IMG/VR virus record: IMGVR_UViG_3300043446_000886
Coordinates: 1 to 20,490 of that record
DNA: 20,490 bases
Strand: one strand, 5' to 3'
From: a virus
In this document: one piece after another, positions 4,263 through 20,425 of the stretch
Layout of the letters: every line of letters begins with the position of its first letter
Position numbering within the stretch: position 1 is the stretch's first letter
Position numbers and translations under genes: made by a program
Notes under the pieces: model-generated
Told to the model about the DNA's origin: nothing
Databases searched by the model: none
The model's input: the letters and a program-made list of their open reading frames with translations, nothing else

Positions 4263-4444
4263 TGGGTTGGGTTGCTGCTTTGATTTTGGTGGGTTTGATG
4301 CTACCCCTTTTGGGTATGCTATATCTGGATATCTTGGAAGCCAAACATGAAGTCAAAGCACAGGTGGAAAAGGTAGAGAAACTCAGGCGTGAGCTTGAAA
4401 GAAAGGAAAGAGATGATTCCAATAGTAGCGTCCCTCCTCGGTAG
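4139..4444 (+). CDS. Small membrane protein with coiled coil, i-spanin-like
   Basis: A 101-residue protein with a basic, proline-rich N-terminus (PDSDYYIPPLPVVVPPLRK), one membrane helix (GWVAALILVGLMLPLLGMLY), and a charged coiled coil (EAKHEVKAQVEKVEKLRREL). One N-terminal membrane helix followed by a periplasmic coiled coil is the architecture of inner-membrane spanins, but no partner lipoprotein with a lipobox is visible here, so the call is tentative. Two starts are possible: ATG 4139 (GAGG about eight bases upstream, giving the out-of-frame overlap with the previous gene) and ATG 4262 directly after the upstream stop with a GGGGGA site at about 4249-4254, giving a 60-residue protein. 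I keep the longer form since its N-terminus has protein-like composition. It also overlaps the holin gene by 32 bases. Confidence 0.55.
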   Translation: MATTGGKKKPSGKVSVPDSDYYIPPLPVVVPPLRKSLGEDVMGWVAALILVGLMLPLLGMLYLDILEAKHEVKAQVEKVEKLRRELERKERDDSNSSVPPR

Positions 4445-4922
4445 TCTTGCCCAAAATGGGCTGGGTTTACTGTCGTCTGCCATCCAAGCCAAAGGCAAGG
4501 AAGTGGTTGAAAACACGCTTGGCGTAAAGATTCCTGACAACCCCACCGCAGAAGATGTTTCCAAACTGCGGGAACTGCAATACGCCCATGAGGAGAAGCT
4601 CCTTGAGTTGGGCATTGAAAAAGCCAAAATGGAGTTGGCTGAAATGGAACTGTTTGCAAAAGCCGCCCAGAACGATGCCGACAACATCACAGACAGGTGG
4701 CAAGCAGACATGTCCAGCGATTCATGGCTGTCCAAAAACATACGCCCCATGAGCCTTATAGCCATATTTGCGGGGTATTTCCTGTTTGCCATGATGTCGG
4801 CATTTAACTACAACGCCAACGAGTCCTACGTCACCTTGCTTGGTAACTGGGGAATGCTTATCATGGGTGCATACTTTGGCGGTCGCACAGTTGAGAAACT
4901 GGCAGAAATGAGGAAGAAATGA
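4413..4922 (+). CDS. Holin (3TM/GTA-holin type)
   Basis: A 169-residue protein starts at ATG 4413, with GGAAAGAG before it; the GTG 4389 is further inside the upstream gene. It begins with a hydrophobic helix (IPIVASLLGSLAQNGLG), has an amphipathic charged middle (about residues 40-100) with TAEDVSKLRELQ and EEKLLELGIEKAKMEL, then WLSKNIRPMSLIAIFAGYF and WGMLIMGAYFGG as two membrane helices near the C-terminus, ending in TVEKLAEMRKK. The WLSKNIRP motif before the helix pair and this overall shape fit the 3TM holin family of phages and gene transfer agents. It would make holes in the inner membrane and set the time of lysis, releasing or activating the endolysin encoded immediately downstream with an ATGA overlap. 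Confidence 0.75.
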   Translation: MIPIVASLLGSLAQNGLGLLSSAIQAKGKEVVENTLGVKIPDNPTAEDVSKLRELQYAHEEKLLELGIEKAKMELAEMELFAKAAQNDADNITDRWQADMSSDSWLSKNIRPMSLIAIFAGYFLFAMMSAFNYNANESYVTLLGNWGMLIMGAYFGGRTVEKLAEMRKK

Positions 4923-5260
4923 GCCTGAGCCAAGAACAAGCTGCGTTCCTGTTGGACGCTTGTAAACTGATCCAGTACGCCACAGAACAAGGGTTTGTGG
5001 TCACAGGCGGGGAACTTGCCCGCACACCTGAACAACAAGCTATTTACGTCAAGACCGGGCGCTCTAAGACCATGAAAAGCATTCACTTGAAACGGTGCGC
5101 CATAGACTTGAACTTCTTCAAGGATGGGAAGATAATCTGGGACAAGGCAACCATTGCGCCGTTGGGGGCATACTGGGAGTCACTAAACGTAAAAAACCGT
5201 TGGGGCGGAAATTTTTCCAATCTGGTGGACTGCCCTCATTTTGAACGTAACGTGGGTTAA
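4919..5260 (+). CDS. M15-family peptidase endolysin (L-Ala-D-Glu / D-Ala-D-Ala peptidase-like)
   Basis: A compact 113-residue peptidase of the VanY/M15 type, at the short end of the family's usual length. The zinc-binding SxHxxxxAxD motif is SIHLKRCAIDLN, with His56 and Asp63; the third ligand His107 sits in the C-terminal DCPHFE, with Asp104 as candidate catalytic acid. The N-terminal segment TGGELARTPEQQA and W-G-G near residue 95 also match M15 phage endopeptidases, which cut the peptide stems of peptidoglycan. No signal peptide is present, so it needs the upstream holin. It overlaps the holin gene by ATGA with an AGGA site four bases before the start and is followed three bases later by the nozzle-like gene, so the lysis genes are embedded within the virion operon. 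Confidence 0.85.
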   Translation: MSLSQEQAAFLLDACKLIQYATEQGFVVTGGELARTPEQQAIYVKTGRSKTMKSIHLKRCAIDLNFFKDGKIIWDKATIAPLGAYWESLNVKNRWGGNFSNLVDCPHFERNVG

Positions 5261-8371: not shown

Positions 8372-10309
8372 ATGAGCCTACAGCACGCCGCACAACATTT
8401 AGCTGCCCACGGCAGAGGCCCCGACACAACCCTTGTCCACATGTCAAAGGGCGAGGTGAAAAGTTTAAACGACTTGGCTATGGCTCATGGCGGGCATTTG
8501 ACCATCAATCCACATACGGGTTTACCCGAGGCTGGTTTTTTGTCTTCTATTCTTCCCATGATTGCTGGGGTTGGCTTAACCGCAATATCCGGCGGCGCAA
8601 TCAACCCCATGACCGCAGGTCTGTTGGTAGGTGGGCTTACAGGAGTTAGTTCCGGTAGCTTGTCTAAAGGGCTAATGGCTGGTTTGGGCGCTTATGGTGG
8701 CGCAGGATTGGGTGAAGCCTTGGCAAGCTCTGGTATGCAAGCGGCAGCAGCGCCTGAAATGACTGCGGCCCAATCAAAATTAAGTTCTTTAACCCCGGCG
8801 CAAATTTCAGAATTCCAAGCCGCAAGTGAGCCTGTCACTTCTGGCCCGGTATTTGAAGCCCAGCAAGCTGCCCAGCAAGCCGCACAAAAAATGGCTGCGC
8901 AACAAGCTGGTTATGGTGCAGGCGGTTATGGATCTGACGCAGTAATGGGCAGGCTTTCAACTATGGGCGAAGGCATTAAAAGCTTAGGCCAGCCCGGAGG
9001 CTTTAGTAATTTGGCTGCAAATGCGGGCGGCAATATGGGTCTTGCCAAATACGGCATGGCGGCAGCCGCGCCTTTGCTCTCAGAGTCGCCAACTGTACCA
9101 AAGCCTGCCGAAGACAAAGATCTTGGTCAACGATATGAATACAGTCCCGGCGTTGTAATGCCTACCCCCAGAGCTGACCCGTATGGACGGGAACAGCGGT
9201 ATTTCAGCCCATCGTATACCCCAATCAGTTCCGATCGGGCAAAGGGCATTTACGGGTTTGCTGGCGGCGGCCCGATTGAGGCTATGTCCAATGCAAATGC
9301 CATAGGAGCCAATACGGGCTATCCAATGGCTGATATAAGCAAGGGCGCATATGCCACACCATACCAAACCCCTATATCCCGCAATGTGATTGCTGACACC
9401 TCAGATACTGGGGTCAGTCCAATTACCGGGGAGATGACCAACTTTGCTGATGGCGGAGTGGCAACTGCCACCCCAATGCCCGGCGAAAAACCAAGCTATG
9501 AATATGACCCAATGAAGCAATTGTTCTCCAAGATTGAGTCAATGCCTTCTGACGATCAAACAAGACAGATGACTGAAAAACGCCCTATGCAGGGCGGCAT
9601 ACCTGCACACAGTGGTTATGAAGCACCATCCACACAAGGGCTTTCTGAAGGGATTGCAAGTGGTTTGGTTGGCTATGGGTCTATGGGATTTATGCCCGGC
9701 GGATTTATTGCAAAGATGCTTGGTCAAAGCATGATTAACTCTGCGCTTGCGAATGCTGCTTTAAACGGCGGTTATACAGGAACGTTTACAGGGCCTGCCG
9801 CCTTTAGCGGCGGTGTTGGCAACATAACAACCGAAGGTAGCAGTGGCCCAATAAGCGGAGAAGCTTTTAGCAATAGCGGCGGAGGCGGTGGCGAAGGCGG
9901 TGGCGGGGGTCGTGGAGGTGCGGGCAATGTTGGCACAGGCAACGGCAGCACTGCATCTGGCGTAGGCACAGGAATTGGCAGTCTTGGCGGTATGGGTGGC
10001 GGCCTTGCTGCTGGCGGCCTGTCCCATCTTGGTGATTATTCAGATGGCGGTAGATTACTGCGTGGCCCCGGCGATGGTGTGTCTGACTCTATCCCTGCGG
10101 TCATTGGCAAAAAGCAACCTGCGCGTTTAGCTGACGGCGAATTTGTAGTACCTGCACGTATCGTTTCTGAACTGGGTAACGGGTCAACCGAAGCTGGTGC
10201 GCGTAAGTTGTACGCCATGATGGACAGAATTCAATCCGCCCGCAGCAAAACTGTGGGCAAAGGCAAGATTGCCAAAAACAGTCGGGCTGAGAAGTATTTG
10301 CCAGCATGA
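8372..10309 (+). CDS. Glycine-rich virion protein with LADGEFVVPA C-terminal domain, putative internal protein
   Basis: 645 residues from ATG 8372. The N-terminus (HMSKGEVKSLNDLAMAHGGH) is followed by a long Gly/Ala-rich hydrophobic stretch (about residues 50-130, for example LLVGGLTGVSSGSLSKGLMAG) that could insert in or cross a membrane. The middle is low in complexity (QQAAQQAAQKMAAQQ), and includes three GG motif repeats (GFAGGG at residue 295, NFADGG at 357, DYSDGG at 555). A polyglycine hinge (9878-9925) precedes the C-terminal domain, LADGEFVVPARIVSELGNGS and TEAGARKLYAMMDRI, which recurs in many phage virion proteins I recall. It shares an ATGA with the next gene. Position and composition suggest a virion protein ejected with the DNA, possibly one forming part of a channel; no enzymatic motif is visible. 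Confidence 0.65.
   Translation: MSLQHAAQHLAAHGRGPDTTLVHMSKGEVKSLNDLAMAHGGHLTINPHTGLPEAGFLSSILPMIAGVGLTAISGGAINPMTAGLLVGGLTGVSSGSLSKGLMAGLGAYGGAGLGEALASSGMQAAAAPEMTAAQSKLSSLTPAQISEFQAASEPVTSGPVFEAQQAAQQAAQKMAAQQAGYGAGGYGSDAVMGRLSTMGEGIKSLGQPGGFSNLAANAGGNMGLAKYGMAAAAPLLSESPTVPKPAEDKDLGQRYEYSPGVVMPTPRADPYGREQRYFSPSYTPISSDRAKGIYGFAGGGPIEAMSNANAIGANTGYPMADISKGAYATPYQTPISRNVIADTSDTGVSPITGEMTNFADGGVATATPMPGEKPSYEYDPMKQLFSKIESMPSDDQTRQMTEKRPMQGGIPAHSGYEAPSTQGLSEGIASGLVGYGSMGFMPGGFIAKMLGQSMINSALANAALNGGYTGTFTGPAAFSGGVGNITTEGSSGPISGEAFSNSGGGGGEGGGGGRGGAGNVGTGNGSTASGVGTGIGSLGGMGGGLAAGGLSHLGDYSDGGRLLRGPGDGVSDSIPAVIGKKQPARLADGEFVVPARIVSELGNGSTEAGARKLYAMMDRIQSARSKTVGKGKIAKNSRAEKYLPA
9878..9925 (+). repeat. 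Polyglycine-encoding tract
   Basis: Reads mainly GGN codons, giving GGGGGEGGGGGRGG. It forms a flexible linker in front of the conserved C-terminal domain of the glycine-rich virion protein. Confidence 0.85.
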
Positions 10310-10734
10310 GGATTTCATTGATTCCACCCGGTGCGGTAGCGGGAGTTATTCCGTCGCTGTTACCCTACTTGGTGAAATCACAGGAATGGACAAGAGGCCG
10401 AGCCACAGTTGACGACATACTGCGGTTTGTGTTGAATGGGCAGATGCAATTGTGGGTTGGGCATGACGACAACGAAATTTACGGGCATGTCATAACCGAA
10501 GTTAAAAGTTACCCTCGGCGCAAGATGCTGGTTGTTCAGTATTGCGCAGGGGAGCCAAACCACATGCAATATGTGGATGATGAAATGTTCGACCTGCTTG
10601 ACAGGTTTGCTAAGGATGCTGGATGCTCCGGCATTGAATTTGTTGGTCGCCCGGGTTGGCGAAAACAAGCTGGGAAATACGGGTTTGAGGTACAGAGTGT
10701 GATGTACCAAAAATTCTTTAAGGATGAAACATGA
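10306..10734 (+). CDS. GNAT-like acetyltransferase-fold protein in the internal virion gene cluster
   Basis: A 142-residue protein that begins within the previous stop (ATGA) and ends within the next start (ATGA). The order helix (VDDILRFVLNGQMQLWVG), strand pair (YGHVITEVKSYPRRKMLVVQ), then a helix (DEMFDLLDRFAKDAGCSGIE) and GRPGWRKQAGKYGFE fits a GNAT fold, in which the last segment resembles the G-x-x-[KR]-x-G-F at the end of acetyltransferases. The usual acetyl-CoA loop (R/Q-x-x-G-x-G/A) is not obvious; the equivalent stretch is CAGEPNHMQY, so activity is doubtful. T7-type phages carry a small internal virion protein of similar size at the same relative place, and GNAT-like proteins there are common. 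It may be a structural or chaperone-like derivative or an enzyme acting on a virion or host protein. Confidence 0.6.
   Translation: MRISLIPPGAVAGVIPSLLPYLVKSQEWTRGRATVDDILRFVLNGQMQLWVGHDDNEIYGHVITEVKSYPRRKMLVVQYCAGEPNHMQYVDDEMFDLLDRFAKDAGCSGIEFVGRPGWRKQAGKYGFEVQSVMYQKFFKDET
10720..10724 (+). promoter_or_regulatory. Ribosome binding site for the 815-residue protein
   Basis: AAGGA sits six bases before ATG 10731 and inside the upstream gene's end, so the two genes are translationally coupled. Confidence 0.6.
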
Positions 10735-13178
10735 GTTATTCGCGTCGTCAACTTTATGCACTTGGTGAGCCAATTGGGGATTCTGCTACCCGTTTAAAAC
10801 CGGGCGGGCGTGTTTATGGCGCTGGTGGTGGCGACGGTGGTCAACCGTCCCAGCAAACACAAACCACAGAGCTGCCTGAATGGGCAAGACCTTATGCCAA
10901 AGATGTTTTGGCTAAGGGTCAAGCACTTACTGACATCAATAAAAACCCTTACCAAGTCTATGGTGGTGAGCGTATTGCAGGCTTTCAGCCTATGCAGCAG
11001 CAGGCATTTGAAACTGCCGCCAACATGCAGCCTTCCGCTCAGTTGGGTTTAGGTACGGGATTGGCTGGCGCAGCTGGTTTGGGTGCGCTTGGTACAAACT
11101 ATCAAGCAGGTAGATTTTCTGGCGGTCAGTTTGGTAACCGTCAAGCCGCTCAGTACATGTCTCCGTACATTGAAGAAGCTATGCAACCTCAATTACGGGA
11201 AGCTGAACGCGCCTCACAGATTCAAGGTGCGCAACAACAAGCCCAAGCCGTCGGTGCTGGTGCTTTTGGCGGAAGTAGAGATGCTCTCATGCGGGCAGAA
11301 CGTGAACGTAATCTTGGAATGCTCCAAGGCGACATCCGCGCCAAAGGCTATCAAACAGCCTATGAGCAAGCTGCTAACCAATATAACCAAGACATGGCTC
11401 GTCGTTTACAGGCCCAGCAATTGGGTGAGCAGTCGCGTCAATATGGTGCAGGTTTAGGAATGCAAGGTCTTCAAACCGCCTTACAAAGCGCAGGTCAGCT
11501 TGGTCAGCTTGGTCAAACCGAGTATGGTCAAAAAATGGGTATTACTGGGTTACAAAGTCAATTTGGTGCGCAACAGCAGGCACAAGCACAGCGTCCGTTA
11601 GACATGGCGTATCAGGATTTCCTGAACCAACAGAACTACCCATACAAGCAGTTGGGCTTCATGTCCGACATGATCCGTGGATTGCCGCTTGGCCAAAAAT
11701 CTACCAGTACAGTCTACGAAGGGTCAGGCCCGGGCATGGTGCAGACTTTGGCTGGCTTGGGTGGCGCAGCTTACGGCTTTGGTAAGTCTGGATTGTTTGG
11801 CGCTGCCGAAGGCGGTTTGATGGAATCGTACGCTGGTGGTGGTGTGACCAGCCCACAAAACGTAGAAAACATTTTGGCCAAACTTAGTGACCAACAGTTG
11901 GCACAAGCCAAAGAAGCGGCGTTGAACCGCCGCGATATTATGGAAGCCCAAATGATTGATGCTGAGATGGCCGAGCGGGCTTCAATCCGTGGTGGTCTTG
12001 GCGGCGCGTTTAATCAAATTCCAGAAGATCAGCAAGAGCAAATGATGGCTGGCGGCGGGATTGTTGCGTTTGCCAAGGGCGGCGACACTTACGGGAATAA
12101 GTTTGAACAAAGTATGGCTGACTTGAAGGCAATGGCTAATCAAGCACCGCCAGAGCAGACTCCAGAACAAAGAGATGAAGCTATATCCGCGCGTATTCCA
12201 ATGCTGGAGAAACGCTACGGCCCTGACATTACTCAACCATATTTGGAAGAAACCAAAGCCAAACGGGCTGCGTTGGCAGACCAAATGGAAAAAGATAAAG
12301 GGCTTGCTATTGCCGCTGCAAGTTTGAAGTTACTAAGCCCAAATAAAAATCTTCGTGGCCGCAGTGAAAGAGAACAACTTTTTGCTGGCCTTGGTGAAGC
12401 AGGTGAAGCATTCGTCGGCGAAGTTGGCAAGCTCAAGAAAGACTACAGAGACGTTGATGACAAATTGCGCCAGTCTGAAATCTTGTTGGCCACTGCTCAA
12501 CAATCTCGTAAGGAAGGTCTGGTTAATAAAGCAGATGCTGAAGAGACTCGTGCACGAGATTTGAAGAGAGAAGCCTACAAAACTCAAGTTGGTATTCAAG
12601 AGAAAGTTGCTCAACTCAACAGCGGCTTGGCTCAAACAGAGATGCAGGGTAAGACCCAAGAAAAAGTCGCGGGTATACACGCTGGTGTTCAGCGTGAGAT
12701 GATGAATAAGCCCGGTGAATTTGAACGCATGCTCAGTGACTACGAAAAACGGTTAGGTCGAAAACTCACGCCCACAGAATACAAGGAAGCTATGGCTGAA
12801 ATCGGTGCAGCTCGGTACGGTGCAAAATACACCGGCCCAGATACCACGTTTGCCAATGACGCTAAGTTTCAAGCTGAGTTGGATAAACGCACTGCCATGT
12901 TGAATTTACAAAAAGCTCGACCCGGTATAACCCAAGAAGAGATTGAGAGAATAAATGGGCAAATAGAAGGCGAACGCCAGAAACTCATCGAAGAATTTAA
13001 GCAAACCCGCGCTTCTGGGATTACTTCTAAAGCCGCTCCCGGTGCTGCACCAGCGCCGAGCGCTTCAGCAGCTCCTCCCGCTCAGTCGCCGCTGTATGTA
13101 ACAGCGCCAGACGGTAAAACGTACAGATTTAAAACCCAAGCCGAGGCAGATAAGTTCAGACAACAAATTGGGGGTTGA
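10731..13178 (+). CDS. Large Gln/Ala-rich internal virion-type protein
   Basis: An 815-residue protein with three parts. The N-terminal part (residues 1-340) is Gln/Ala-rich and helical, with landmarks GGERIAGFQPMQQQAFE, AQYMSPYIEEAMQPQLREAE and DFLNQQNYPYKQLGFMSDMI, segments seen together in virion proteins of aquatic short-tailed phages. The centre (about 345-450) has a Gly-rich stretch (LAGLGGAAYGFGKSGLFG) and GG motifs (AAEGG, YAGGG, MAGGG, FAKGG). The rest is charged coiled coil (about 480-720), then an Ala/Pro linker (APGAAPAPSASAAPPAQ), ending in DGKTYRFKTQAEADKF and QQIGG. Together with the GNAT-like and giant neighbours it corresponds in position to the T7 gp13-gp16 internal core proteins, which are ejected to build a channel through the cell envelope; that correspondence is inferred from gene order and size, not from detectable homology. 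Confidence 0.6.
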   Translation: MSYSRRQLYALGEPIGDSATRLKPGGRVYGAGGGDGGQPSQQTQTTELPEWARPYAKDVLAKGQALTDINKNPYQVYGGERIAGFQPMQQQAFETAANMQPSAQLGLGTGLAGAAGLGALGTNYQAGRFSGGQFGNRQAAQYMSPYIEEAMQPQLREAERASQIQGAQQQAQAVGAGAFGGSRDALMRAERERNLGMLQGDIRAKGYQTAYEQAANQYNQDMARRLQAQQLGEQSRQYGAGLGMQGLQTALQSAGQLGQLGQTEYGQKMGITGLQSQFGAQQQAQAQRPLDMAYQDFLNQQNYPYKQLGFMSDMIRGLPLGQKSTSTVYEGSGPGMVQTLAGLGGAAYGFGKSGLFGAAEGGLMESYAGGGVTSPQNVENILAKLSDQQLAQAKEAALNRRDIMEAQMIDAEMAERASIRGGLGGAFNQIPEDQQEQMMAGGGIVAFAKGGDTYGNKFEQSMADLKAMANQAPPEQTPEQRDEAISARIPMLEKRYGPDITQPYLEETKAKRAALADQMEKDKGLAIAAASLKLLSPNKNLRGRSEREQLFAGLGEAGEAFVGEVGKLKKDYRDVDDKLRQSEILLATAQQSRKEGLVNKADAEETRARDLKREAYKTQVGIQEKVAQLNSGLAQTEMQGKTQEKVAGIHAGVQREMMNKPGEFERMLSDYEKRLGRKLTPTEYKEAMAEIGAARYGAKYTGPDTTFANDAKFQAELDKRTAMLNLQKARPGITQEEIERINGQIEGERQKLIEEFKQTRASGITSKAAPGAAPAPSASAAPPAQSPLYVTAPDGKTYRFKTQAEADKFRQQIGG
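11493..11519 (+). repeat. Short 9-bp tandem repeat
   Basis: GGTCAGCTT occurs twice in tandem and is followed by a partial third copy, GGTCAAACC. It encodes GQLGQLGQT within the Gln-rich helical part of the 815-residue protein. Slippage at this point would keep the frame. Confidence 0.8.
13170..13174 (+). promoter_or_regulatory. Ribosome binding site of the giant gene, deciding a GTG start
   Basis: GGGGG ends one base before the TGA of the upstream gene and six bases before GTG 13181. The alternative start TTG 13175 directly abuts the G-run and would have no spacing, so GTG 13181 is preferred. Confidence 0.6.
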
Positions 13179-13180
13179 CT

Positions 13181-13291
13181 GTGGACTACGCAAAATTAGC
13201 GTCCCAATTTGGCGGTGCGCCAATTGAAGATCAACCATCAAAAGCGCCTGACTATGCAGCTCTTGCATCGCAGTTTGGTGGTGCGCCTGTT
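13181..13291 (+). repeat. N-terminal pair of DYxxLASQFGGAP motifs
   Basis: Encodes VDYAKLASQFGGAPI (13181-13225) and PDYAALASQFGGAPV (13247-13291), separated by a seven-residue linker. Eleven of the core residues are the same. A third, looser copy closes the protein at 20372-20410. Confidence 0.9.
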
Positions 13292-16200
13292 GCGGTTCAA
13301 AAGCCTGAAGAAGACGACAGCATTTGGACTAAAGCAGCTGACTTTTCCAAGTACATACTTGGGTCTGCTACTTCTGGTGTAGCCAGTATTCCTAAAGGTG
13401 TAGAAGAAGGCGCAAAAGGCGCAGTACGTAAAGCAGCAGAAGGCGAAGTCGATCTCCATGAGCCAATGCCGTTGGTTCTTGGCAAGATGGCGTCCAGAAA
13501 AATTGATGAGTTGTTGCGCGGTAAAGAACAGCAAGACAAAGATGCTTTGGCTTTGGAGCGTACGCTTGCAAAAGTTCCAGAGATTCCCGGTTCTACATAC
13601 TTGAGAGACCTCGGTAAGCAAGCTCAACAAAGTATTGAAGACAGCGTATCAGAGCAATCCAAGAAAGCGGTTAGAGAGTCACAAATAACCGGCAACATCT
13701 TCAAGGGTGAAATAGATTTTGGTAAGAACCCAACTGTGCGCGGCTACGCTATGCAAGCGGCCAGTGTGTTTGGTTCTTTGGCCCCTGTAATTGCCACATC
13801 CGTAATTACAAAAAGCCCAACTGCCGGTGGTGTAGCGGGCGGCGCTATGGCTGCTGACGAAGCGGCTACAAATGCGTCCGACTTTATTGGCAAGATGAGC
13901 CATGAAGAGTTGATGAAAAACAGCCCGTTCTATGCTTCGCTGATAAAGCAGGGTGTCAAGCCGGACGAAGCCAAAGATTTAACCACACGTAAAGCAGCAG
14001 AGACAGGCGCAATCATGCAGGGTATGGTTGCCACGTTTGGCGATCGTTTTACTGGGCAGCTTGTAACCGGTGCGTTCGATGACCTATTGAGAAAAGCAGC
14101 GGGCAAGTCCGTACTTGGTAGAACGGCCGCCGGAGCTACCGTTTCTGGGTTGGAAGAAGGCGTGCAAGAGACCGCTGAAGGTGTTGCAGCCGACATTGCT
14201 ATCAACCGGGTGTCAAAGAACAAAGAGATTGGCGAAGACTCCGCAGCCAATCTTATTCTTGGCGCGTTGGGCGGCGCACCTACAGGCGGTGTGCGTGGTT
14301 TGAAAACTGCTCTGGCGGATAAATTTAAAGACCCAAATACTACACAACAAGAACGCCAAACTATCCTTGATAACCTCACTCAAGGAATGGAAGAGCCTGC
14401 TGGTTTGTTTGCAGACCAAGAAGGTGGCGTACCTACTGCCCCCACCGGAGAAGAATCTCAGCGGGATAAGTGGGCAAGTCGTGTTCAATTAGACCGTAAT
14501 ACAGGAACTGTATCTACAAAATACGGCGACGCAGATCAAGCGCTCCCACCGTCAAATGAACCGCCCGGTTTATTTGAAGATGTAGATACAGGCGCTGCTA
14601 CAACAGCAGCTCCAAGCGCACCTGCTGCTCCAGCTGCCGCTGCGCCTGCACAATCTCTTGAAGCCTACGGCGATTTTGTACGCCAGTACACGCAGTTACG
14701 GGATGAGTACAACTCTCTCCCACAAGGCCGCATAGATCAAGCGGGCATGAACCAGCGTGGGTTGATCTTGAAAGATTTGGCGCAAGTGGTAGACGCCAAC
14801 ATGGGCTTCATCCGCAACAAAGCGCTGGCCGCTCAACTCAAGAACCCTATATTCGACGGCGAAAAAGCCTTGGCTGCGCTTGAGCCGGATGTTGGCCAGC
14901 CCCGTGCAATGCAGGGTAATCTATTTGGGGTCTTCAAAGGCGCTGCCCGCCGCATGAAAAACGCTATGGCGTTGTCTGGACAAAGCGTTGAAGGCGCAAT
15001 CCAAGAGCTTGAGAACAGCCGCGAACGCTTGCAAGAAAAAGCTGACTCCGGTGGATACGATGACGCAACAATCATAAGTATGCGTCCCGCTGGCATGACT
15101 TCTGGTCAAGCGCTCAAAAACAGAGATTCAATAATCCAAAATTACACGCAAAACGCAAACGCTGAAATTGATCAAGCAATTGATTACTTGCGTAGAGGTG
15201 TTGGTCAGCCCCGTGCGATGCAAGGTGATTTGTTTGATAACCAAAAAATCCAGCAAGAAAACGCTGAAGTGATGGGTGAGCGTAGGGCAGCAGAAAGACA
15301 AAAAACCCCTGAACAAAAAGTTGCTGAAGAAATTGAACCAGAAGAAACTGCGCCTACTGAAACAGTTCGTCAAGGTGTTCCCGCAAGAGAAAGATTTGAG
15401 AAGGCCCCTGCTGTAGACACAGAGCATGTGGTGCAGACGGTGGAGGGCGGCAAGATCAAAGGTTTCTTTGATTCCATTCAGTCCATCTCTGACTCCCCTG
15501 CGGAGCAGGAACGTCACGGCAACTCAAAGAACACCGCTGCTGACACCATGTTGGAGTTTGATATTGCCCAGCCGGGCGAGACCACCAGCGCCGGTTCACA
15601 ACAGATGCTCGACTACCTTGCCCGCCGTGTGGGTGGTCAAGAGCAGTTGGATAAGTTATTGGATGCACTTCAGAATGCAGCACCAGAAACACAAGCTGAT
15701 TTGTTGAGTAGAGCTGGATTACCAGACTTGACCACACGTCGCGGTATGGATGAGTTCAGTGCGCAAGTTCAAGCCTATGTGGATCAGATGTTGGCTACCG
15801 GAGAGGGGCCTCTATCGACCATACGAACCAGCAAGATGCGGCCATCTCAAGTCACTGGAACAAAGATACCGTATCAAGAAACAATAACCACCGGCGCTAC
15901 TGTAACCAGCGCTTATGCAACACCAAAAGGTGGCAAACCACGCCGACCAAGTCAGGCAGTGCGTGAAATAGTTCGTGACATCAATGACAACAAACTGCGT
16001 GCAGCAGCATTGATTCTCAAACAGATGACGGGGAAAATTTCTCCGCAGGCCCAAGCCGCCATTACATATTTGACAAACCGCAACAGAGAAACCTTTGGCG
16101 ATGCACTCAGAGACTTGGCGTTTGATTTGGCCTATTTTGAGATTGACCCTAAACATTACGGCGCGGGTTCTACTTTCTATAAAGAAGGTGGCAAGTACGC

Positions 16201-19200
16201 ACAGGACTTCCGCGCATGGATTGAAGCCAACTTAGACCCATCTACGTTGCAGTTGCTCGACGAGTTGGTGGCTGAGAACAAACAAAACGCCGAAGAAGCG
16301 GCGAAGTTTGAGAAAGCCATATCTACTTACAACGATGAGCTGGAATCTGCGGCTGAGAAAAAACGTCAAGAGGCGGAGAAGAACGGCGCTAAGTTACCCA
16401 AAGCCCCACGCAGAAAGAGAACGGCCAAAGAACGCCTTTCCAAAATGCAGGAAGAGGCCGAAACCGAAGCGGGCGAAGGTGAAGAAACTCCAGAACCATT
16501 CACTGAAGTCGAAACCAAAAACTTGCCCACCGTCGAGATGCTCACCGAAGTGCATCCGGCTATTCGCCGTTTGCTGATTGAAGGCAAGACCCGCGACGCC
16601 CTTGAGCTTCTTGCACAGACAAAGAACAACAAGTATTACGCTGAACTGGCTCAGCGCATACTGGACACCGGCTTTACGGCTGAGACACGCCTGATTGATC
16701 CTGACACTATGGAGTCGTTGTCCAACGACCCACAGGTTAAAGAATCACTGAATGAGCGATTGAACTCGCTGAGCGATTTGGTTGTGGCGCTCTATCCGCA
16801 GGAGCAGCAAGCAGCCATCATTGAGGGGTTGCGATCCGGCAAGTTACGTAATGTGGTTTTTGCAATTGAGACCATGCAGGATACGCTGGATAAAAACGGC
16901 GGTACTGAATCCAACCAGATGCTGCTCGATAGCGTAGCGCAGTTGGTCAACGAGCAGTTTGCATGGAACGGTAAGTACGATCCAGCGACAGACAAAGTTG
17001 TCATGCGCCAAGGTGCTGGCTACCTTACAAACCATTTGCTGCTGCATGAAACTCTGCATGCCGCCGCATCTCATTTGCTTGACAACGCAGATAAGCTGGT
17101 TGGTATACAACGCCAAGGTTACGAGAGGCTTGACGAGTTATATCAGTATTCCAAGAACATGTTTTCGCAGAAGGGCGTGGACTTGTCTACTGTGTACGGC
17201 CTGCAAGACATACATGAGTTCTTGTCTGAGGCACTCACAAACCCAGAGTTTCAAGCACTGCTGCGTTCTATTCGCTACAAAGCCGCACCGTTTTCTTTGT
17301 ACAACCGCTTCACTGACGCAGTAAGAAAACTGTTTAACGTGAAGCCCGGTGGCCCAAGCAACGTCATGGTTGAGGTCATGTTTGCTGCTGATGCAATGAT
17401 GGCCGGTACGATGTCCTTGGAAGGCATGAATGAAGCGGGCGGCACTATTGCCGGGCCACCTAAGCCAAGAGCTATGGCCACTCGACGGCCAGCACGTCAG
17501 ACGACTGTACCCAAGGGCATGCCAAACCAGCCGTCCACCATTAAGCGGTGGATGATGGCCAGTACTTGGACAAAAGGCAAGATGCGTGAGATACGTAGCA
17601 TGGATGCGTCTGCACGCGATGCGTATCTGGGTATGCTGACCTTGCGTCAGATCAATGACTTGGTTGCTAATCGTATCCCACAGATTAGTAACTTCATTAA
17701 CGTGACAGAAAAGTTTCTGTCCCGCAAGTCACAAATACTGAAAGAGTCTGGTGACACTTCCCGTAAGTGGGAGAGATTGCAATCTGCTGACCCTGAGATG
17801 TCACGCAAGCTCGGTGAAGTCATGCACACCGCCACCATCTTAGAAATTGACCCAGACAAAGCCACACGCGCTCAACAGGCAAGCAATCCCCAACTGATGA
17901 ATAGTTGGAGAGCGCTGAGTCCAGAAGCACGAACTATATACAGAGAAGTGCGTGACTTCTACGAGCGCAGATACAGCCAGTACAAACGGTTGATGAACCA
18001 ACGCATTATTTTTATGCGGCAGATGGGTGTGTCCGAGGCAACGATCACAGAGATTCGTAACGAGTTTGAAAAAGGTAAACGGGCGGGGCCTTACTTTCCG
18101 TTGATGCGCTTTGGTAAATTCTGGTATCAGGTTGGTAAAGGCGCAAACCGTGAGTACTACATGTTTGAGTCACAGGCTGCGAGAGAAGCGCACTTGCAGG
18201 CCCGTCTGGATCAGGAGCCTAATCAAGCTGCCCGCGATGCTTTGGAGCGAACCATCGGCACAAATATTGGTGATGATTACCAAAAGCAAATGGACTTGCA
18301 CGCACGTCAATCTGAGTTTCTGAAGAATTCGTTTGCTGCCATAGATAGTATGAATATGGCGGGCCTCACACCTGCTGACGCCGATAAGCGCAAGACTGAG
18401 CTGAAAGACAACCTGTACCAGACATACTTGGCCAATCAACCAGACCGCAGTATCCGTAACGCTTTCATTCACCGTAAGAGTATTGCTGGTTACTCTGAGG
18501 ACGCGCTGCGCAGTTTTGCATCGTCATCGTTCAGTATGGCGTATCAGATGGCGCGTCTGGAATATTCTCCAGAAATGTTTTCGCAACTTGACGCTGCAAG
18601 GTCACAGATAAAAGGACGCTTCACTCCCGGCGCAGCATACAGTGAAGTATTGACCGCAGAGAACGATGAGTTGCGCAGCTATGTCCGAGAGATTGATAAC
18701 CGTCTTGCTGCAATGCTCAACCCAACTGATACGGGTAAATGGACATCGTATTTCTCAAACATTGGGTTTGTCTATTACCTTACTTCGATTGGTTCTGCGG
18801 TCGTCAACGTGATGGGTGGCGTGATGATTGGCGCACCCACATTGATTGGGCAACAAGTTCGTGCAAACCCCGGCATGAGTTACACGACAGCAACGGGCCG
18901 TGTGTTATTCAATATGAGCAAAACTGTGGCCGAAATTATGGCCACTGGGTTTGGTATTGAAGCTGGCGGGCGTGTAATAGATTCACGTCTGTTATCCCCA
19001 TCATTGGATCGCTCCACAAGTTTGTCTGCTGTAGATAAAGCAGCGTACAACCGTTTTGTTGCTGATGGTTTGATTGACATTACAGCAGCCTACGACCAAT
19101 CTGGTTTGGCAGCAAACCCAACGTCTGAGTATTCCAGCATACCCAATCGGGCCATGCAGGTTGTTGCTTACGCTTTCCACCATGCTGAGCGATTCAATCG

Positions 19201-20425
19201 CGAAGTCATGGCCATGTCTGCCTTCAGGTCAGCTATGGAGAAGCGGGCGAACTACCCCAACAAACAACAAGCATTTGCGGAATCAATTGCCGAAGCAAAA
19301 GACTTGACGCAACGGGCCATGTTTGACTACTCGTCAACCAACAAGCCACGTTTCTTACAGAGTTCAATAGCCAGAGTAATTTTCCAATTCAAACAGTTCC
19401 CGCAACAAATGACTTGGTTCTTGGCTCGCAACGCTTGGAACTCGTTTGGTAATTTGCCTGAAGAAGAAAAGCGCGAAGCCCGCGCCCGCTTTGTTGGCAC
19501 GATGGGTATGGCAGCTATCTTCTCTGGAGTCACTGGTCTCTGGGGTTTCTCTACCGTGGCGGCTATCGTTAATGCCGCAGCTCATTTGCGTCCCGGTGCT
19601 GATGACGACGAACCCTTTGACTTTGAGCTTGAGTTTGCAAACTGGGCGGTCAACACGTTAGGCAAGAACATGGGCACTATGGTGTCGCGTGGTATTGGCA
19701 ACGCTGCCGGTATTGACTTGCACAGCCGCTTGAAGCTCGACGGTATGTGGTTACGCGATGGCCGCGATAACCAAGATGCAGAATCTTGGGTGCAAAGCAT
19801 ATTGGTTGGCGTATTGGGGCCGTTGGCTGGACTCGGTGTGAATGCTGGTCGCGCCTATGACTTGTACAACAAAGGACACGCAGATCGCTCCATTGAAACC
19901 ATTCTTCCCGGGTTTGCAAAGCAACCGTTGGTTACTGCTCGATACGCAAAAGAAGGCGCGTTGACTTTGCAGGGTGAAATCATGAAGAAAGAGTTCACTC
20001 CGTTTGAGTTGATGATGCAGTCCTTGGGTATACGGCCCGCTGACCTTGCGGAAATTCAGTTCCGCAACATGAAAGTGAAGGGGCAGGCTGAGGCAATCAA
20101 CAAGAAGCGTGAAAACATAATGAACATTTTTGCGCTGACCTTCATGACCAACGACCCTAAAGGAAATGAAAAAGCCTTCGACATGATCATGGAGTTCAAC
20201 AAGAAGTATCCCACCAAGGCTATTGAAGCTGAGACCATTATCAATTCAATAAAAGGGAAGTTGGAGAAGTCTGCGCAAACCGATCACGGTTTGTATATTG
20301 ACCCCAAGCTGCGGTACTTGTTCACTGACACGTACATACAGAAGCTCACGCAGAAAGAATCTGTGCCAAAGGTGGATTACAAAGCCCTTGCTCAACAACA
20401 CGGCGGCGAACTTGTGAGCGAATAA
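13181..20425 (+). CDS. Giant virion protein: zincin (HETLH), PLxRFG-type region, membrane-active C-terminus
   Basis: 2414 residues from GTG 13181, far larger than T7 gp16 (about 1300 residues). Order: two [V/P]DYAxLASQFGG motifs (residues 1-37); a Gly/Ala-rich, membrane-prone section with LEEGVQETAEGV (about 190-380); a disordered linker with four [GN/GD]LF-type motifs (406-685); helical domains; a charged coiled region (about 1030-1130); a zincin with HETLH (1289-1293) and HEFLSEALTNPEF (from 1345), whose Glu1350 or Glu1346 may be the third ligand; a helical region; PYFPLMRFGKFW (PLxRFG motif, 1640-1645); GFVYYLTSIGSAVVNVMGG (from 1862) and FVGTMGMAAIFSGVTGLWG (from 2104) as membrane segments flanking DYSSTNKPRFLQSS, which resembles the LPD38 module of large polyvalent proteins; and a terminal VDYKALAQQHGG. 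It is probably ejected with the genome, forming a channel and carrying a protease. Domain names rest on motif memory. Confidence 0.8.
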   Translation: MDYAKLASQFGGAPIEDQPSKAPDYAALASQFGGAPVAVQKPEEDDSIWTKAADFSKYILGSATSGVASIPKGVEEGAKGAVRKAAEGEVDLHEPMPLVLGKMASRKIDELLRGKEQQDKDALALERTLAKVPEIPGSTYLRDLGKQAQQSIEDSVSEQSKKAVRESQITGNIFKGEIDFGKNPTVRGYAMQAASVFGSLAPVIATSVITKSPTAGGVAGGAMAADEAATNASDFIGKMSHEELMKNSPFYASLIKQGVKPDEAKDLTTRKAAETGAIMQGMVATFGDRFTGQLVTGAFDDLLRKAAGKSVLGRTAAGATVSGLEEGVQETAEGVAADIAINRVSKNKEIGEDSAANLILGALGGAPTGGVRGLKTALADKFKDPNTTQQERQTILDNLTQGMEEPAGLFADQEGGVPTAPTGEESQRDKWASRVQLDRNTGTVSTKYGDADQALPPSNEPPGLFEDVDTGAATTAAPSAPAAPAAAAPAQSLEAYGDFVRQYTQLRDEYNSLPQGRIDQAGMNQRGLILKDLAQVVDANMGFIRNKALAAQLKNPIFDGEKALAALEPDVGQPRAMQGNLFGVFKGAARRMKNAMALSGQSVEGAIQELENSRERLQEKADSGGYDDATIISMRPAGMTSGQALKNRDSIIQNYTQNANAEIDQAIDYLRRGVGQPRAMQGDLFDNQKIQQENAEVMGERRAAERQKTPEQKVAEEIEPEETAPTETVRQGVPARERFEKAPAVDTEHVVQTVEGGKIKGFFDSIQSISDSPAEQERHGNSKNTAADTMLEFDIAQPGETTSAGSQQMLDYLARRVGGQEQLDKLLDALQNAAPETQADLLSRAGLPDLTTRRGMDEFSAQVQAYVDQMLATGEGPLSTIRTSKMRPSQVTGTKIPYQETITTGATVTSAYATPKGGKPRRPSQAVREIVRDINDNKLRAAALILKQMTGKISPQAQAAITYLTNRNRETFGDALRDLAFDLAYFEIDPKHYGAGSTFYKEGGKYAQDFRAWIEANLDPSTLQLLDELVAENKQNAEEAAKFEKAISTYNDELESAAEKKRQEAEKNGAKLPKAPRRKRTAKERLSKMQEEAETEAGEGEETPEPFTEVETKNLPTVEMLTEVHPAIRRLLIEGKTRDALELLAQTKNNKYYAELAQRILDTGFTAETRLIDPDTMESLSNDPQVKESLNERLNSLSDLVVALYPQEQQAAIIEGLRSGKLRNVVFAIETMQDTLDKNGGTESNQMLLDSVAQLVNEQFAWNGKYDPATDKVVMRQGAGYLTNHLLLHETLHAAASHLLDNADKLVGIQRQGYERLDELYQYSKNMFSQKGVDLSTVYGLQDIHEFLSEALTNPEFQALLRSIRYKAAPFSLYNRFTDAVRKLFNVKPGGPSNVMVEVMFAADAMMAGTMSLEGMNEAGGTIAGPPKPRAMATRRPARQTTVPKGMPNQPSTIKRWMMASTWTKGKMREIRSMDASARDAYLGMLTLRQINDLVANRIPQISNFINVTEKFLSRKSQILKESGDTSRKWERLQSADPEMSRKLGEVMHTATILEIDPDKATRAQQASNPQLMNSWRALSPEARTIYREVRDFYERRYSQYKRLMNQRIIFMRQMGVSEATITEIRNEFEKGKRAGPYFPLMRFGKFWYQVGKGANREYYMFESQAAREAHLQARLDQEPNQAARDALERTIGTNIGDDYQKQMDLHARQSEFLKNSFAAIDSMNMAGLTPADADKRKTELKDNLYQTYLANQPDRSIRNAFIHRKSIAGYSEDALRSFASSSFSMAYQMARLEYSPEMFSQLDAARSQIKGRFTPGAAYSEVLTAENDELRSYVREIDNRLAAMLNPTDTGKWTSYFSNIGFVYYLTSIGSAVVNVMGGVMIGAPTLIGQQVRANPGMSYTTATGRVLFNMSKTVAEIMATGFGIEAGGRVIDSRLLSPSLDRSTSLSAVDKAAYNRFVADGLIDITAAYDQSGLAANPTSEYSSIPNRAMQVVAYAFHHAERFNREVMAMSAFRSAMEKRANYPNKQQAFAESIAEAKDLTQRAMFDYSSTNKPRFLQSSIARVIFQFKQFPQQMTWFLARNAWNSFGNLPEEEKREARARFVGTMGMAAIFSGVTGLWGFSTVAAIVNAAAHLRPGADDDEPFDFELEFANWAVNTLGKNMGTMVSRGIGNAAGIDLHSRLKLDGMWLRDGRDNQDAESWVQSILVGVLGPLAGLGVNAGRAYDLYNKGHADRSIETILPGFAKQPLVTARYAKEGALTLQGEIMKKEFTPFELMMQSLGIRPADLAEIQFRNMKVKGQAEAINKKRENIMNIFALTFMTNDPKGNEKAFDMIMEFNKKYPTKAIEAETIINSIKGKLEKSAQTDHGLYIDPKLRYLFTDTYIQKLTQKESVPKVDYKALAQQHGGELVSE
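14891..14926 (+). repeat. VGQPRAMQGNLF peptide repeat, copy 1
   Basis: 36 bases encoding VGQPRAMQGNLF at residues 571-582 of the giant protein. It matches copy 2 at 15200-15235 in 30 of 36 bases. Confidence 0.95.
15200..15235 (+). repeat. VGQPRAMQGDLF peptide repeat, copy 2
   Basis: 36 bases encoding VGQPRAMQGDLF at residues 674-685. Of the six base differences from copy 1, five are silent and only one changes the residue (Asn to Asp). Confidence 0.95.
17045..17245 (+). other. Zincin metallopeptidase active-site region of the giant protein
   Basis: HETLH (17045-17059) is a perfect HExxH zinc motif in a helix (HLLLHETLHAAASHLL). It is followed about 50 residues later by DIHEFLSEALTNPEF, a context in which the E of gluzincin-type third ligands is found in phage polyvalent proteins. 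The upstream GKYDPATDKVVMRQGAG strand fits the edge strand before the helix. The sequence supports a zinc peptidase, not its substrate. Confidence 0.7.
20372..20410 (+). repeat. C-terminal copy of the DYxxLAxQxGG motif
   Basis: Encodes VDYKALAQQHGGE, thirteen residues beginning at residue 2398 and stopping four residues before the end of the giant protein. It matches the N-terminal motif VDYAKLASQFGGA at V, D, Y, L, A, Q, G and G. Confidence 0.85.

What the first reader, a model, noticed from the sequence alone, without database searches (positions are those of the whole stretch)
17045..17245. HETLH zincin inside a giant ejected virion protein
A perfect HExxH in a helix-like context, with HEFLSEALTNPEF about 50 residues on, shows a zinc metallopeptidase domain in the middle of a protein that otherwise looks membrane-active and structural. 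A protease delivered with the genome could process the virion protein itself, host defence proteins or the cell envelope. HExxH domains are known in large polyvalent phage proteins (Iyer, Aravind and colleagues' polyvalent protein class), but substrates are not established.
Basis: partly seen in the sequence, partly recalled or inferred. Interest (0 to 1): 0.6.

Follow-up and report, generated by a model that had tools for sequence, protein, structure and literature searches.

The report
Zinc-protease domain in injected phage protein
A phage known only from metagenome sequence carries, inside a giant protein of the kind packed in the virus particle and injected with the DNA, a zinc-protease domain with all its active-site residues; this kind of domain was already predicted in such proteins, and what it cuts is still unknown.

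Summary
Observation confirmed. HETLH is residues 1291-1295 of a 2416-aa ORF (13175-20425, +). About 0.015 HExxH motifs are expected by chance in this protein. H1291, E1292, H1295 and the third-ligand candidate E1348 (in HEFLSEA) are invariant in the 38-row and 21-row alignments while their codons vary synonymously; E1352 is not required. An AlphaFold2 model (pLDDT 83) puts HExxH on one helix and E1348 on the next. The domain's profile matches podophage ejection proteins (PDB 8vb2, 9sfn, 23sg), the HExxH domain of N4 virion RNA polymerase and, weakly, anthrax lethal factor. Of five tested segments, only this one aligns confidently with N4-type vRNAPs. It precedes LPD39 and a PLxRFG/DarB-like C-terminal module; most named relatives have HExxH or HExxxH at the same place. 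This is a member of the zincin class of phage polyvalent proteins (Iyer et al. 2017), ordinary as a kind. Less ordinary: the matching domain of phage PhiM1's tetrameric ejection protein was published as endolysin/transglycosidase-like, and the giant's linkers hold repeated P[RK]AM and Qxx[LM]F motifs. Most likely role (inferred, about 40%): processing of the ejected chain or its partners after entry. Zinc binding, proteolysis and substrate are undemonstrated.

The parts
13175..20425 (+). Giant ORF, 2416 aa, TTG start overlapping the preceding stop; DarB-like/PLxRFG-type phage protein
   Evidence: phrog_10089 DarB-like antirestriction E 1.4e-88; NCBIfam NF032893 E 1.5e-137
16775..17434 (+). Zincin domain with its N-terminal helices, residues 1201-1420
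   Evidence: AF2 model pLDDT 83.4 from a 38-sequence alignment; profile matches to podophage ejection proteins and N4 vRNAP
16970..17005 (+). Beta hairpin before the active-site helix (residues 1266-1277)
   Evidence: strands 66-69 and 74-77 of the model; G and Y conserved in at least 90% of rows
17045..17059 (+). HETLH, residues 1291-1295: zinc ligands H1291 and H1295, general base E1292
   Evidence: invariant in A4 and A5; on helix 1286-1303; synonymous codon changes only
17216..17218 (+). E1348, proposed third zinc ligand, in IHEFLSEA
   Evidence: invariant, while H1347 and E1352 are other residues in some relatives; on helix 1346-1355
17465..17482 (+). PRAMAT linker motif directly after the zincin domain (residues 1431-1436)
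   Evidence: P[RK]A[MI] 130-140 residues after HExxH in most homologues
17609..18016 (+). LPD39, large polyvalent protein associated domain 39 (residues 1479-1614)
   Evidence: PF18858 E 2.2e-18, 67 bits, cut-off 27
18086..20311 (+). C-terminal PLxRFG module (tail-700), residues 1638-2379
   Evidence: NF032893 E 1.5e-137
14900..14926 (+). Linker motif PRAMQGNLF (residues 576-584)
15209..15235 (+). Linker motif PRAMQGDLF (residues 679-687), 103 residues after the first copy
10731..13178 (+). Neighbouring large ORF (815 aa), in the position of the virion structural gene that precedes the giant gene in LASTA, Skulduggery and PEp14
   Evidence: gene order
10306..10734 (+). Small ORF in the position of the N-acyltransferase gene of Lastavirus and Skulduggery
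   Evidence: phrog_7642 E 5.8e-8, unknown function; gene order; assignment by position only

Best explanation
Residues about 1201-1420 of a giant virion-type protein form a zincin: H1291 and H1295 on one helix and E1348 on the next hold a zinc ion, and E1292 activates the water that cuts a peptide bond. The giant is a slim member of the DarB-like/PLxRFG proteins that podophages package and inject. I propose that the peptidase acts after ejection, mainly as a processing protease on the ejected chain itself or on partner ejection proteins, cutting exposed linkers. Support by step: zincin fold and complete active site, shown by conservation, profiles and model (about 0.92); virion-delivered, by family (about 0.85); active peptidase rather than structural metal site, inferred (about 0.75); self or partner processing after ejection as the main role, inferred (about 0.4).
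For: Invariant H, E, H and E across 38- and 21-row alignments, with synonymous drift only. The general base E1292 is invariant too, which a purely structural zinc site would not need. Model pLDDT 83 with the expected helix order. The A5 profile finds PDB 8vb2 (3e-12), 9sfn (1e-9), 23sg (7e-8), N4 vRNAP (5e-4), lethal factor (0.011) and IrrE (0.14). Structural alignment to the lethal factor zinc domain, Z 5.0-5.4. Profile-profile match to vRNAPs at 97.5%, E 7e-12, for this segment and no confident match for the other four segments. LPD39 and PLxRFG follow; most named relatives hold HExxH/HExxxH at the same place. A DarB-like giant of the related phage type was found in purified virions of phage JC1 by mass spectrometry (PMC9144972). 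P1 DdrB, which also bears such a domain, is cut before packaging (PMC5512222). Linker motifs recur at junctions, one directly after the zincin.
Against: N4 vRNAP, which carries the same domain, is packaged unprocessed (PMC5512222), and recombinant full-length N4 vRNAP showed no sign of degradation (PMC12633501); self-cutting is therefore not automatic. No other known enzyme domain was found in this 2416-aa protein, so the usual argument of cutting cargo enzymes apart is weaker here. Foldseek gave no PDB match below E 1. No zinc, cleavage or substrate data exist for this protein.
Confidence: 0.6

Rival explanations
1. The domain is a zinc-dependent wall endopeptidase that opens peptidoglycan cross-links for the ejection channel, as transglycosylase domains do in other podophages.
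For: No SLT transglycosylase, Hydrolase_2 or Phage_lysozyme2 family was found in 14 related records, several of 58-65 kb, while LASTA has SLT and Atu_ph08 has Hydrolase_2 at the N-terminus of the giant. In PhiM1 the matching domain sits in the ejectosome, whose octameric ejection protein has a lysozyme-like domain (PMC11440229).
Against: N4 virion RNA polymerase and crAss-like phage proteins carry the same kind of domain next to cytoplasmic cargo. The nearest characterised fold relative, lethal factor, cuts proteins. Records are fragments, so missing families prove little; Phage_lysozyme occurs in 3 of 14 records and M15 peptidase in 5, possibly as endolysins.
Confidence: 0.22
2. The domain is an effector that cuts a host protein (defence or housekeeping) after injection.
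For: Weak profile and fold similarity to lethal factor and sub-threshold similarity to Tox-MPTase4. It is the only recognised enzyme domain in this protein. Iyer et al. list the effector role as a possibility (PMC5512222).
Against: Shared by phages of unrelated hosts (Flavobacterium, Acinetobacter, Pseudomonas, Rhizobium) and by proteins with unrelated cargo, which suits a general delivery task better than one host target.
Confidence: 0.2
3. The zinc site is structural or inactive: a fold kept for assembly and packaging.
For: In N4 the region around the domain is needed for encapsidation and the protein stays intact (PMC5512222); N4 vRNAP is not degraded when expressed (PMC12633501).
Against: The catalytic Glu, not needed for metal binding, is invariant together with all three ligands down to below 25% identity.
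Confidence: 0.15
4. HETLH is a chance match in a helical structural protein.
For: Short motif; the protein is large and helical.
Against: 0.015 expected by chance; conserved with its third ligand in dozens of distinct sequences; solved homologues keep it.
Confidence: 0.01

Closest known systems
Zincin-like MPTase domains of phage polyvalent proteins (Iyer et al. 2017, PMC5512222)
   Same: HExxH helix, Glu on the following helix, variable insert between them, hairpin before; sits with LPD domains in giant phage proteins
   Different: This giant has no other recognised enzyme domain; its clade among their 12 was not determined
N4-type virion RNA polymerase, C1 domain (PMC12633501)
   Same: Profile-profile match 97.5% over 115 columns, same YGxQ(D/N)xxEF motif
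   Different: No polymerase, and no confident match in the other four segments tested; N4 vRNAP is much longer (3500 aa)
Pectobacterium phage PhiM1 tetrameric ejection protein gp48 (PDB 8vb2, PMC11440229)
   Same: Matches the profile at residues 377-501, E 3e-12, with H385, E386, H389 and E449 at the active-site positions (counted)
   Different: 1263 aa; the authors named Asp268-Asp528 endolysin/exotransglycosidase-like, and a search of the main text found no zinc site or protease
Internal virion protein of PDB 9sfn (1337 aa, the length of phiKMV gp37) and gp10 of PDB 23sg
   Same: HExxH and a Glu on the following helix conserved
   Different: Smaller ejection proteins; the phage identity of these entries was not shown by the tool
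DarB-like/PLxRFG giants of Lastavirus, Skulduggery and PEp14
   Same: PLxRFG-type end module, LPD39 shown for LASTA (E 9e-65), HExxH 1083-1193 residues from the C-terminus, similar gene order
   Different: 3700-4900 aa; LASTA has methylase, helicase and transglycosylase domains, which this protein lacks; their HExxH region is not found by this family's profile
Anthrax lethal factor zinc domain (M34 type)
   Same: HExxH and an EF-type third ligand; weak profile match (0.011) and Z 5.0-5.4
   Different: Too distant to be called the same family

Membership tests
Zincin (HExxH metallopeptidase with Glu third ligand) | HExxH on a helix | tested here: met
   helix 1286-1303 of the model; invariant
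Zincin (HExxH metallopeptidase with Glu third ligand) | Third-ligand Glu on a following helix | tested here: met
   E1348 invariant, on helix 1346-1355
Zincin (HExxH metallopeptidase with Glu third ligand) | Small beta sheet before the active-site helix | tested here: inconclusive
   only two short strands predicted (66-69, 74-77), where three are usual
Zincin (HExxH metallopeptidase with Glu third ligand) | Fold matches solved zincins | tested here: inconclusive
   lethal factor Z 5.0-5.4, rmsd about 4, 105-109 aligned; Foldseek E above 1 in PDB
Zincin (HExxH metallopeptidase with Glu third ligand) | Binds zinc and cuts peptides | not testable with these tools
   needs the purified domain
Phage polyvalent protein, MPTase class (Iyer et al. 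2017) | Giant phage protein combining the MPTase with LPD domains | tested here: met
   LPD39 E 2.2e-18; MPTase by profile
Phage polyvalent protein, MPTase class (Iyer et al. 2017) | Further enzyme domains of unrelated activity in the same chain (common, but the class is defined as 2 to 15 domains) | tested here: inconclusive
   no other enzyme family above cut-off in Pfam or NCBIfam; the regions before residue 1180 remain unassigned, and LPD39 is listed as potentially enzymatic
DarB-like/PLxRFG virion protein | C-terminal PLxRFG module | tested here: met
   NF032893 E 1.5e-137, 460 bits, cut-off 100
DarB-like/PLxRFG virion protein | Present in virions and injected | not testable with these tools
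   a DarB-like giant was found in JC1 virions (PMC9144972); inferred here
N4 virion RNA polymerase | Polymerase domain before the zincin | tested here: not met
   the middle region has no match to vRNAPs; only about 500 residues lie there
Lethal-factor-type peptidase (M34) | Significant similarity to the lethal factor catalytic domain | tested here: inconclusive
   E 0.011 by profile, Z 5.0-5.4

The most novel reading that the evidence does not exclude
The zincin is a general working part of podophage ejection complexes, including structures already solved and named otherwise, and it recognises a repeated linker code (P[RK]AM-type sites) to cut the giant chain at domain junctions after entry, while the Qxx[LM]F part of the same linkers docks the released pieces on the host sliding clamp.
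Probability: 0.08. Interest if true: 0.8.

Novelty: new member of a known kind. Interest (0 to 1): 0.38.

Why it matters
It ties three literatures together with one measurable active site: polyvalent proteins, N4 virion polymerase, and solved podophage ejectosomes. If the domain is active, the deposited PhiM1 map could be re-examined for metal at H385, H389 and E449, and a single Glu-to-Gln change in a cultured relative such as coliphage N4 would test the 2017 processing hypothesis. It also cautions that an 'endolysin-like' label in a published ejectosome may hide a protease.

Tried and rejected
Chance motif: rejected (0.015 expected; conserved). E1352 as the third ligand: rejected, since it is Tyr in L022, L024 and L025. 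Single-clade AF2 model with 11 sequences: pLDDT 50, not used. Foldseek against PDB: nothing below E 1. VIA-align rank 1, N4 vRNAP 9pnr (Z 7.0), lies on 2385-2579 and not on the HExxH domain C1 (2124-2375), so it is not counted as support. N4-like chassis with swapped cargo: suggested by a PHROG match of residues 68-701 to vRNAP, but profile-profile alignment gave only 19% for the N-terminus and no confident match elsewhere outside the zincin, so not claimed. P[RK]AM in other virion proteins as shared cleavage sites: none in other ORFs of the window, apart from a looser PKAIK match in a short overlapping ORF. Bacterial genome scan with this profile: no relatives confirmed. Absence of transglycosylases as proof of a wall role: rejected, because the records are fragments.

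Full report
What was checked. The finding places HETLH at 17045. Translation confirms it as residues 1291-1295 of a 2416-residue ORF at 13175-20425. With 22 His in the protein, about 0.015 HExxH motifs are expected from composition, and only this one is present.

Conservation. Three scans of viral contigs gave relatives at 91% down to about 30% identity. All 28 loci keep HExxH, with different middle residues. In the 38-row alignment the invariant columns are H1291, E1292, H1295, E1348, F1349 and two more, P1357 and L1363. In the wider 21-row alignment, with an Acinetobacter N4-like polymerase, a Rhizobium phage and a Flavobacterium phage, the invariant columns are H, E, H, E, F, P and F. The spacing between the two helices varies while the ligand residues stay. 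Codons at these positions vary synonymously. E1352 is Tyr in three relatives, which leaves E1348 as the third ligand.

Fold. AlphaFold2 with 38 sequences gave mean pLDDT 83.4 and pTM 0.68. HExxH lies on helix 1286-1303 and E1348 on helix 1346-1355, with a short hairpin (1266-1277) before. VIA-align found five lethal factor entries at Z 5.0-5.4 over 105-109 residues, above the background rows, which mostly cover only the N-terminal helices. These Z values are modest and are not proof alone. Foldseek in PDB found nothing significant. In viral models the best matches are a transglycosylase-bearing phage protein, internal core proteins of Pseudomonas phage PAO1_Ab05 and Ralstonia phage RSB3, polyvalent proteins and, further down, a virion RNA polymerase.

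Relatives of known structure. Profiles of the domain match, with rising confidence as the profile widens, PhiM1 gp48 (8vb2), an internal virion protein (9sfn), gp10 (23sg) and N4 virion RNA polymerase, then lethal factor at E 0.011. The displayed alignments for 8vb2, 9sfn and 23sg keep HExxH and the Glu; the displayed N4 alignment keeps HExxH but ends before the Glu region. The PhiM1 paper names Asp268-Asp528 of gp48 endolysin/exotransglycosidase-like (PMC11440229), and a search of its main text found no zinc site or protease. The profile match (377-501) lies inside that stretch, so I suggest that label be re-examined. The N4 paper notes the HExxH in its C1 domain (PMC12633501).

Mobile module. 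Aligned against six N4-type polymerases, only the zincin segment of the window family matches confidently (97.5%, E 7e-12); the N-terminal, middle, LPD39 and C-terminal segments do not. After the zincin come LPD39 and a PLxRFG module. In named PLxRFG relatives an HExxH or HExxxH lies 1064-1234 residues from the C-terminus: LASTA, ZX1, Skulduggery, PEp14, Mwe-JY07 and, as HELITH, Vibrio phage douglas; Agrobacterium phage Atu_ph08 has none. Whether all of these are zincins was not tested. LASTA and Atu_ph08 add methylase, helicase and wall-hydrolase domains that the window protein lacks. The gene order before the giant resembles that of LASTA and Skulduggery.

Delivery. Virion location is inferred. 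A DarB-like giant of Bcep22-like phage JC1 was found in CsCl-purified virions with 51 unique peptides (PMC9144972). PHROG links the window protein to DarB-like antirestriction proteins.

Mechanism. Zinc held by H1291, H1295 and E1348, with E1292 as base, is the standard zincin mechanism; the invariance of E1292 argues for catalysis. The substrate is open. Iyer et al. proposed self-processing before packaging (P1 DdrB), in the head, or after entry, and an effector role (PMC5512222). N4 polymerase stays whole in virions and showed no degradation when expressed, so if the homologous domain cuts itself it must be triggered after ejection. I hold self or partner processing after entry as most likely at about 0.4, wall opening at about 0.2, and a host target at about 0.2.

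Linker motifs. The poorly conserved linkers before the zincin hold P[RK]AMQGxLF copies 103 residues apart, and P[RK]AMA[TG] follows the zincin. In 31 homologues Qxx[LM]F occurs 77 times before the zincin against 6 expected from shuffles, and P[RK]A[MI] 59 times against 2; the homologues are related, so these are not independent counts. Some further copies lie in linker segments that only part of the family has, with different flanks. Qxx[LM]F fits the known bacterial sliding-clamp-binding pattern (own knowledge, untested); P[RK]AM at junctions could also be a recognition site. Both are leads.

Wall enzymes. Fourteen related records have LPD39 in every case but no SLT, Hydrolase_2 or Phage_lysozyme2 domain; Phage_lysozyme occurs in three and M15 peptidase in five. 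This leaves room for a wall role but does not show one, as the records are fragments.

Verdict. A real, conserved zincin of a known class in a slim giant protein. Ordinary as a kind, useful as a link between solved ejection proteins and the polyvalent-protein hypothesis.

Noticed in passing
14900-14926, 15209-15235, and homologues L013-L069: Repeated Qxx[LM]F motifs (QGNLF, QGDLF and others) in otherwise variable linkers of the giant: 77 in 31 homologues against about 6 in shuffles. The pattern fits a bacterial sliding-clamp-binding motif; clamp binding was not tested.
   Followed up: partly
14900, 15209 and 17465 (residues 576, 679, 1431): P[RK]AM motif at three linkers, one directly after the zincin; 3 observed against 0.13 in shuffles. 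Possible processing sites.
   Followed up: partly
13184-13216, 13250-13282, 20375-20407: DYxxLAxQxGG motif twice at the N-terminus and once at the C-terminus of the giant (DYAKLASQFGG, DYAALASQFGG, DYKALAQQHGG); perhaps a packaging or docking tag.
   Followed up: no
PDB 8vb2 residues 377-501 (PhiM1 gp48): The stretch published as endolysin/exotransglycosidase-like contains the HExxH plus Glu pattern of the zincin domain and matches its profile.
   Followed up: partly
L089 residue 1962 of the giant (Vibrio phage douglas 12A4): HELITH, an HExxxH form, at the place of HExxH before the C-terminal module; Iyer et al. describe HExxxH variants of this peptidase.
   Followed up: no
2-355 and 345-935: Two neighbouring 2OG-Fe(II) oxygenase genes (PF13640) upstream of a tail assembly chaperone gene and a Gp10_C tail protein gene.
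   Followed up: no
4389-5260: Holin-like gene (sub-threshold match) followed by a short M15 peptidase gene, probably the endolysin, placed among virion genes.
   Followed up: no
N4 vRNAP 9pnr residues 2385-2579: The best structural alignment of the zincin model to N4 vRNAP fell outside the HExxH domain; either a helical look-alike or a degenerate second copy.
   Followed up: no
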